Below, piece by piece: positions 270 through 971 of a stretch of 33,031 bases of DNA (positions are counted from its first letter, which is position 1; every line of letters starts with the position of its first letter). The DNA is from Halanaerobium saccharolyticum (GTDB taxonomy: Bacteria > Bacillota > Halanaerobiia > Halanaerobiales > Halanaerobiaceae), in contig NZ_QAXS01000036.1 in NCBI RefSeq assembly GCF_003053565.1, positions 1-33,031 on the forward strand, read 5' to 3'. The notes beneath the pieces were generated by a model that made no database searches, was not told where the DNA came from, and saw nothing but the letters and a program-made list of their open reading frames with translations. A program made the position numbers and the translations under genes.

Positions 270-303
270 TAAAAAAATAACCCCTCATTAAAAAATGAGA
301 GGC
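270..303 (-). terminator. Rho-independent terminator after trpP
   Basis: On the minus strand, 22 bases past the trpP stop, a hairpin pairs CTCATT with AATGAG around a four-base loop. Two outer G-C pairs continue the stem beyond one mismatch (about 281-302). A T-rich tract follows (complement of the A-run at 271-280). This is a standard intrinsic terminator and closes the trpP unit before the left-edge gene. Confidence 0.75.
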
Positions 304-324
304 CAATTAAAACTATAAATTTTA

Positions 325-858
325 CTATACCGCTTCGTTTTTAGCTCCCTTAACTTCTACATCCATTGCAAAATCAACTACACTAAAGACAATAACTGCT
401 GTGATGGTATTAACTGCCGCCGCTGGAATTACTACTGTAGAAAACAAAACAGTAAATGGACCAGGTAAACCAACAAGCAGAGCAGCTGTACCGAGGAAAA
501 TTCCTCCACTTAAAAGTGTACCAAAAGCAGTTATTAAACCGGTAGATAATTTTCTAGATGGCAGTTTAACAATAATCGGTATTAAAGGATAAACAATCAT
601 AAATGTAAATAATTTATCCACCATATTTGCCACCTGTCCTCCAGGGAAACCGGTAGTTAAAGCAGTAAAAATTCCTGTTGATACTGCTACCAGAAAACCC
701 AATTTAAAGTCCTGTTTAATGATCAATAAAATGAACATCATCGCCAGAGCAAAATCAGGTTTCATCCCCATAACTATTGGAGGAAAAAATGCATGTAAAA
801 TAAATCCAATCGCCACCAACAAAGCCGCCTGTGCTAAATCTTTTGTACTAATTCTCAT
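325..858 (-). CDS. trpP: Tryptophan transporter TrpP
   Basis: A 177-residue integral membrane protein of the TrpP (YhaG) family, a tryptophan uptake protein of Gram-positive bacteria; the usual length is about 170 residues. Family hallmarks visible are the N-terminal helix ending in a HAFFPP-type turn (about 22-27), GMKPDFALAMMF (31-42), ALTTGFPGGQ (66-75) and the C-terminal LPGPF...PAAAVNTITA stretch. About five to six hydrophobic segments span it. The ATG at 858 has an AGGAG 12 bases upstream, slightly far, and the stretch between is occupied by GAG triplets. It has its own promoter and terminator and is unrelated in function to the flagellar genes. Translation is probably controlled by TRAP (see the leader entry). 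Confidence 0.92.
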   Translation of the reverse strand: MRISTKDLAQAALLVAIGFILHAFFPPIVMGMKPDFALAMMFILLIIKQDFKLGFLVAVSTGIFTALTTGFPGGQVANMVDKLFTFMIVYPLIPIIVKLPSRKLSTGLITAFGTLLSGGIFLGTAALLVGLPGPFTVLFSTVVIPAAAVNTITAVIVFSVVDFAMDVEVKGAKNEAV

Positions 859-932
859 CTCAACTCATCTCTCCTTTTTTGTTTTTACTAATCTCAACTA
901 ATTTTTTAAGCTAATCTCTATTAGCTTTTCTA
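848..932 (-). promoter_or_regulatory. Candidate TRAP-binding site (GAG/UAG repeats) in the trpP leader
   Basis: Reading the minus strand as RNA, eleven non-overlapping GAG or UAG triplets occur: 932-930, 918-916, 913-911, 900-898, 895-893, 890-888, 871-869, 866-864, 861-859, 856-854 and 850-848. The last five are spaced 2, 2, 2 and 3 bases and cover the bases from the Shine-Dalgarno through the start codon. Three more (900-888) are spaced 2 and 2. TRAP (MtrB) is an eleven-subunit ring that binds such triplets, and in Bacillus subtilis it blocks trpP translation this way. The site is read directly; control by TRAP is inferred from the motif and the gene it precedes. Confidence 0.7.
908..927 (-). 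promoter_or_regulatory. Stem-loop in the trpP 5' leader
   Basis: A perfect 8-bp stem, AAGCTAAT/ATTAGCTT, around the loop AGAG lies about ten bases from the predicted 5' end of the trpP mRNA. Two of the GAG/UAG triplets lie in its loop and 3' arm, so pairing and protein binding there would compete. No T-run follows on the minus strand, so it is not a terminator in that direction. Confidence 0.5.
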
Positions 933-942
933 ATTATTTAAT

Positions 943-971
943 ATTATACATCAGCCAGAATAAATTGTCAA
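943..971 (-). promoter_or_regulatory. Consensus sigma-A promoter of trpP
   Basis: On the minus strand a perfect -35 box TTGACA (971-966), a 17-base spacer and a perfect -10 box TATAAT (948-943) give a start near 936. The -35 box overlaps one arm of an inverted repeat, AAATTGTC (962-969) and GACAATTT (985-992), 15 bases apart. The flgJ stop lies only 27 bases upstream of the -35 box and no clear terminator separates them, so some flagellar transcript may also run into trpP. Confidence 0.85.

What the first reader, a model, noticed from the sequence alone, without database searches (positions are those of the whole stretch)
848..932. Tryptophan transporter mRNA with a TRAP-type GAG/UAG repeat site in a diderm Firmicute
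Eleven GAG/UAG triplets occur between the predicted trpP mRNA start and codon 4. Five of them (871-848) are spaced 2, 2, 2, 3 bases and hide both the Shine-Dalgarno and the start codon; three more are spaced 2, 2. TRAP is an eleven-subunit ring known to bind such repeats and to block trpP translation in Bacillus subtilis. Seeing the same logic upstream of a trpP homologue in an outer-membrane Firmicute would extend or independently recreate this control. The rather long 12-base Shine-Dalgarno spacing is explained if it is shaped by the repeats.
Basis: partly seen in the sequence, partly recalled or inferred. Interest (0 to 1): 0.75.

Follow-up and report, generated by a model that had tools for sequence, protein, structure and literature searches.

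The report
TRAP-type tryptophan switch on trpP mRNA
The start of this salt-loving bacterium's tryptophan-transporter message carries a landing strip for TRAP, the ring protein that Bacillus uses to shut off tryptophan genes; the protein's gene is present, the strip is conserved in most relatives that have the protein and is lost in those that lack it, so a textbook Bacillus control very probably also operates in a whole order of outer-membrane Firmicutes.

Summary
The window is from a Halanaerobium. ORF 858-325(-) is TrpP. Its leader carries two runs of in-phase (G/U)AG triplets: three at 900-888, and five at 871-848 that cover the Shine-Dalgarno and the AUG. Together they span 53 nt. The genome encodes an mtrB (TRAP) orthologue with all RNA- and Trp-contact residues that I checked. 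TRAP is in 28 of 29 good Halanaerobiales genomes. A five-triplet pattern occurs exactly twice in the 3.2-Mb genome, before trpP and in the trpE leader. Across Bacillota, presence or absence of an array at trpP predicted mtrB correctly in 28 of 29 genomes. So trpP translation is very probably repressed by Trp-TRAP, as in B. subtilis: a known mechanism in a new and large lineage. Bonus: a sister family without mtrB lacks the array; its trpP instead sits behind a Trp T-box and a Trp-Trp leader peptide whose 3' end pairs with the trpP Shine-Dalgarno. No anti-TRAP was found in the order. Binding, ring size and repression are inferred, not measured.

The parts
943..971 (-). trpP promoter TTGACA-17-TATAAT; transcription start inferred near 936
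   Evidence: consensus scan, 12 of 12 matches
908..927 (-).
   Evidence: MFE and centroid fold; stem kept in 6 Halanaerobium leaders, with one C-G to U-G change and a varying loop
888..900 (-). block I of the TRAP site: UAG-UU-GAG-AU-UAG
   Evidence: sequence; 3-5 triplets at the same place in most Halanaerobium leaders
872..887 (-). A-rich spacer of 16 nt between the blocks (10-17 nt in most relatives; 4 and 28 nt in two)
848..871 (-). block II of the TRAP site: GAG-AU-GAG-UU-GAG-AU-GAG-AAU-UAG, covering the start codon and abutting the Shine-Dalgarno
871..874 (-). Shine-Dalgarno GGAG, overlapped by GAG 873-871 and GAG 871-869
   Evidence: sequence
325..858 (-). trpP, tryptophan transporter, 177 aa
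   Evidence: PF17099 E 1.7e-44
278..305 (-). intrinsic terminator after trpP
   Evidence: 12-bp stem followed by T7

Best explanation
The trpP mRNA leader is a TRAP-binding site that controls translation. With tryptophan plentiful, Trp-loaded TRAP wraps the RNA 900-848, contacting block I (three triplets) and block II (five triplets), with the A-rich spacer between them skipped. The site spans 53 nt, the length expected for eleven 5-nt steps round the ring. The Shine-Dalgarno and AUG are then covered and ribosomes cannot load. With tryptophan scarce, TRAP is empty and the transporter is made. Shown by sequence: promoter, triplets, spacing, overlap with SD/AUG, conservation, presence of mtrB with intact contact residues, mtrB/array co-occurrence, absence of a terminator between promoter and AUG. 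Inferred: binding, tryptophan dependence, ring size, repression.
For: mtrB orthologue in the genome. RNA contacts K37, K56, R58 and Trp-pocket residues G23, T25, T30, Q47, T49, S53 are invariant in 27 Halanaerobiales and 17 other TRAPs. mtrB is in 28 of 29 good genomes of the order. Block II is present in every genus member, and its few substitutions are mostly G-to-U at the first base of a triplet, which TRAP tolerates (L041b, L042a, L042b). Over all trp leaders of TRAP-bearing species, NAG trinucleotides 5 nt after a KAG have G 218, U 71, A 17, C 18, against A-rich at distances 3 and 8. Of 354 other gene starts, 6 have a chain of 4 or more: trpB twice, trpE, one that reads as a DAHP synthase beside mtrB, and two unassigned genes in the trpP loci L152 and L157. 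Array-to-mtrB prediction: 19 of 20 predicted positive found, 0 of 9 predicted negative. Second-cistron trpP copies (L048a, L041a, L042b) keep the array in intergenic DNA, which fits translational action. The trpE leader of the same genome has about eleven in-phase triplets, counting one CAG, followed by a hairpin-T-run terminator.
Against: No binding or expression data. H. congolense (G010/L044), G005 and some other f3 species keep only block II upstream of codon 2; some f3 species instead have further triplets in early codons, and G007 has only two in phase. Own TRAP has N51 and V52 where Bacillus has H51 and T52, although the same residues occur in other species that have arrays. One array-bearing draft genome (G125) gave no mtrB match. 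The gap between the blocks is not strictly a multiple of the 5-nt register.
Confidence: 0.93

Rival explanations
1. The triplets are a by-product of a purine-rich ribosome-binding site and of N-terminal codon use, without a regulator.
For: GGAG and ATG supply part of two triplets; dinucleotide shuffles of the leader reach a chain of 5 in 0.13% of cases.
Against: Only trp and aromatic genes and two unassigned trpP neighbours show such chains among hundreds of starts. The two genome-wide hits are trpP and trpE. mtrB-less relatives keep a GGGAG Shine-Dalgarno and ATG but lose the array.
Confidence: 0.03
2. trpP is controlled by charged tRNA-Trp through a T-box or leader peptide, and the triplets are incidental.
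For: This is what the sister family f7 does at the same gene.
Against: No Rfam match in the window, no T-box at L050 even at E up to 1, and no short Trp-Trp ORF upstream of trpP in L050.
Confidence: 0.01
3. TRAP binds but acts mainly by transcription termination, or through the 5' hairpin and RNA stability, rather than by blocking ribosomes.
For: A 5' hairpin (927-908) is conserved in promoter-proximal leaders.
Against: No terminator between promoter and AUG; the array lies on SD/AUG; intergenic second-cistron copies have the array without the hairpin.
Confidence: 0.05

Closest known systems
TRAP (MtrB) repression of trpP (yhaG) translation in Bacillus subtilis (Yakhnin et al. 2004, cited in PMC11255114; also PMC13170310)
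   Same: Same gene family, orthologous regulator, (G/U)AG triplets spaced 2-3 nt over the ribosome-binding site and start codon, no attenuator
   Different: Two-block site with an A-rich spacer in Halanaerobium; a 5' hairpin after the start site; no anti-TRAP found in the order; host is an outer-membrane Firmicute. B. subtilis trpP has nine triplets (from memory, paper not read)
TRAP-mediated attenuation of the trpEDCFBA operon
   Same: The trpE leader of the same genome has about eleven triplets directly after the promoter, then a terminator
   Different: A second terminator-like hairpin just before trpE is conserved in families f1 and f4; its role is unknown
B. subtilis rtpA (anti-TRAP) leader: T-box plus Trp-codon leader peptide (Chen & Yanofsky 2003, 2004, cited in PMC11255114)
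   Same: Same tandem logic as the f7 trpP leader: UGG-specifier T-box, then a short ORF with consecutive Trp codons
   Different: In f7 it controls the transporter itself, in genomes where neither mtrB nor trpE was found

Membership tests
TRAP-regulated mRNA (translational type, as trpP/trpG of B. subtilis) | mtrB (TRAP) encoded in the same genome | tested here: met
   G000:C53:3334-3537(-), PF02081 130 bits, NF009724 over cut-off
TRAP-regulated mRNA (translational type, as trpP/trpG of B. subtilis) | Conserved RNA-contact (K37, K56, R58) and Trp-pocket residues | tested here: met
   All present in the window's genome and invariant in 44 TRAPs aligned
TRAP-regulated mRNA (translational type, as trpP/trpG of B. 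subtilis) | Multiple GAG/UAG triplets separated by 2-3 nt | tested here: met
   3 + 5 in-phase triplets, 53-nt span
TRAP-regulated mRNA (translational type, as trpP/trpG of B. subtilis) | Site overlaps Shine-Dalgarno and/or start codon | tested here: met
   Triplets at 873, 871 and 856 overlap GGAG and AUG
TRAP-regulated mRNA (translational type, as trpP/trpG of B. subtilis) | Triplets conserved in orthologues and absent without TRAP | tested here: met
   in the 24 genomes not seen before, mtrB in 15 of 16 with an array and 0 of 8 without
TRAP-regulated mRNA (translational type, as trpP/trpG of B. subtilis) | Trp-dependent binding by an 11-subunit ring and repression of translation | not testable with these tools
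   Needs gel shift, crystal or EM structure, and reporter fusions
Anti-TRAP branch of the B. subtilis circuit (ancillary, not defining) | rtpA/yczA homologue | tested here: not met
   Only weak matches inside frames of about 390 aa, taken to be the DnaJ zinc-finger segment, and none in Halanaerobium
T-box leader (RF00230) | Covariance-model match upstream of trpP | tested here: not met
   No match in the window; present at trpP in mtrB-less f7

The most novel reading that the evidence does not exclude
Within one bacterial order the tryptophan sensor on the same transporter gene has been swapped. Most families read free tryptophan through TRAP on trpP mRNA. The mtrB-less family f7 reads tRNA-Trp charging twice, with a UGG-specifier T-box followed by a Trp-Trp leader peptide whose 3' end pairs with the trpP Shine-Dalgarno. 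The same TRAP-to-T-box exchange is seen at a second locus, an aldehyde:ferredoxin oxidoreductase operon found, as full-length relatives, only in order members where no trpE was found.
Probability: 0.8. Interest if true: 0.6.

Novelty: new member of a known kind. Interest (0 to 1): 0.47.

Why it matters
A 2012 paper describes TRAP as 'present in several Bacilli' (PMC3435397, abstract). Here the protein and its whole target logic (trpP, trpE, trpD, trpB) run through an order of diderm, halophilic anaerobes, without a detectable anti-TRAP. A triplet array at trpP predicts mtrB almost perfectly, so TRAP regulons can be read from genomes. The mtrB-less sister family is a natural control, and shows how one sensing system replaces another on the same gene.

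Tried and rejected
Strict five-triplet NN-spaced pattern: no hit in the own genome because the site has one 3-nt spacer; solved with a variable gap. Anti-TRAP search: only weak matches inside long frames, taken to be DnaJ. Rfam: no family in the window. Considered that all eleven triplets form one site: rejected, because three lie in a hairpin whose loop varies among species. Considered that the gap between blocks is strictly in register (2+5n): only roughly so, not claimed. Considered a T-box behind the conserved second hairpin before trpE: no match in the seven trpE loci scanned; left unexplained. Literature: no paper on TRAP in Halanaerobiales surfaced in the held library; most subscription papers are not held. 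No tree of TRAP was built, so vertical inheritance versus transfer was not tested.

Full report
WHAT IS THERE. The window is contig 36 of a 3.2-Mb Halanaerobium genome (closest named relatives H. kushneri and H. saccharolyticum, 95-98% identical TrpP). The ORF 858-325 on the minus strand is TrpP (PF17099, E 1.7e-44). A perfect sigma-A-type promoter (971-943) and a downstream terminator (305-278) make trpP its own transcription unit.

THE OBSERVATION. All stated triplets exist with the stated spacings. Thirteen GAG/UAG are present, eleven if they must be at least 2 nt apart. In 20,000 dinucleotide shuffles, 26 reached a chain of five and 2 reached eleven separated triplets; no other chain of four or more exists in the window. 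In the entire genome the five-triplet pattern with optional extra bases has two hits: this site and the trpE leader. The reversed control also had two hits, so the number is not remarkable; that both real hits are trp genes is. The hairpin 927-908 holds three of the eleven triplets, and its stem is kept in six leaders while the loop drifts, so I count the site as 3 + 5 triplets.

IS THERE TRAP? Yes: one mtrB, 130 bits, over both curated cut-offs, about 104 bits to a TRAP of solved structure (1c9s). Residues that contact RNA (K37, K56, R58) and tryptophan are invariant in 44 aligned homologues (residue roles from established knowledge of TRAP structures). mtrB occurs in 28 of 29 well-assembled genomes of the order and in none of five genomes of family f7, one of which is the 29th. 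In two f4 genomes mtrB sits just upstream of trpE, and in two others just upstream of trpB, in each case with an array between or over the start.

CONSERVATION. Every trpP leader in the genus has GGAGA(G)AUKAGYUKAGAUGA or close to it over SD and start; upstream block I has 3-5 triplets in most, with an A-rich spacer usually of 10-17 nt and a span of 47-59 nt, 53 in the window. Changes inside triplets of block II are mostly G-to-U. In species with tandem trpP copies the second copy has its own array in the intergenic spacer. In f3 genomes with little upstream of the start, further triplets appear in early codons (for example L045). Across trp leaders, in-phase NAG is G 218, U 71, A 17, C 18, the order of preference known for TRAP.

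PREDICTIVE TEST. From trpP leaders of 29 Bacillota genomes I wrote down which should have mtrB (note), then searched: 19 of 20 predicted positive and 0 of 9 predicted negative (Fisher p about 1e-6). Five of these genomes (G244, G123, G317, G293, G039) had been seen before; without them it is 15 of 16 and 0 of 8, p about 1e-5 by hand. Related genomes are not independent trials. A smaller earlier check agreed.

REGULON. In-phase arrays precede trpE, trpD, trpB and trpP in the order. The own trpE leader has GAG.UAG.GAG.CAG.UAG.GAG.GAG.GAG.GAG.UAG.GAG directly after the promoter; with this stretch held single-stranded, a strong hairpin plus T-run forms, while free RNA folds the array into pairing with it. 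This matches TRAP attenuation of trp. Anti-TRAP is not detected.

THE NATURAL CONTROL. Family f7 lacks mtrB and no trpE was found there. Its trpP starts (GGGAGAUGAAUUUAAUG) lack the array. Instead, three genomes have a T-box with UGG specifier (RF00230, 106-119 bits), then a short ORF (MKILHKNYFNMDTWWQISL*...MDTWWRFSLSKIDGESS*...MYINKDIWWQLKK*), and immediately after the Trp-Trp codons a segment complementary to the trpP Shine-Dalgarno region (UCUCCCUUU/AAAGGGAGA; UCUCUCUUU/AAAGGGAGA; CAACUC/GAGUUG; folds). I infer that a ribosome waiting for Trp-tRNA frees the trpP Shine-Dalgarno, as proposed for B. subtilis rtpA. One of the three trpP genes has in-frame stops and may be dead. A second swap: an operon of a 4Fe-4S subunit plus aldehyde:ferredoxin oxidoreductase has an eight-triplet chain in TRAP-bearing G021 and a UGG T-box in f7.

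MECHANISM AND CONFIDENCE. Trp-TRAP covers 900-848 and blocks ribosome loading on trpP. I put 0.93 on TRAP control of trpP in this genome and somewhat less on translation being the only level. What is not shown: binding, stoichiometry, tryptophan response.

NOVELTY. The mechanism is known in B. subtilis (PMC11255114, PMC13170310). I found no report for Halanaerobiales in the held library, which misses most subscription journals. I file it as a new member of a known kind, in a lineage well outside Bacilli, with an unusual two-block site and an informative rewired sister family.

Noticed in passing
L032:1060-1520 (+), L034:1058-1510 (+), L054:2215-1780 (-) (family f7, no mtrB): trpP behind a UGG-specifier T-box and a short Trp-Trp leader ORF whose 3' end pairs with the trpP Shine-Dalgarno, with differing but matching sequences in three genomes: tandem tRNA-Trp sensing as in B. 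subtilis rtpA, but on the transporter.
   Followed up: partly
L202 (G021), L204:2556-2289 (-), L205:1146-1413 (+): Operon of a 4Fe-4S subunit and aldehyde:ferredoxin oxidoreductase, full-length relatives only in order members where no trpE was found: eight-triplet TRAP-like array plus terminator in TRAP-bearing G021, UGG T-box at the same place in mtrB-less G033 and G037. Possibly a tryptophan salvage route.
   Followed up: partly
L192 and L193, about 30-80 nt before the second nadA (G011, G013): About seven GAG/UAG triplets in the spacer before the second nadA copy, kept in two species while the rest of the spacer diverged: candidate new TRAP target.
   Followed up: partly
L078:1495-1560 (G005; second copy at C1:2450793-2450820): Nine in-phase triplets over the start of a 233-aa ORF with no Pfam match, the array being present twice in the genome: candidate TRAP target of unknown function.
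   Followed up: no
L098 (G036, a 62%-complete genome with no mtrB found): Five-triplet chain upstream of an NSS-family (SNF) transporter although mtrB was not found; chance, relic or incomplete assembly.
   Followed up: no
trpE leaders L110, L112-L116, L119-L125: A second terminator-like hairpin (CGGUCAGGCU...AGCUCUGGCCGUUUUUU) just before trpE, conserved in f1 and f4, matches no Rfam family in the loci scanned; role unknown.
   Followed up: partly
L188 (G159, locus of mtrB): A gene that reads as a DAHP synthase beside mtrB has a six-triplet chain at its start, suggesting that TRAP may also control the entry to aromatic synthesis there.
   Followed up: no
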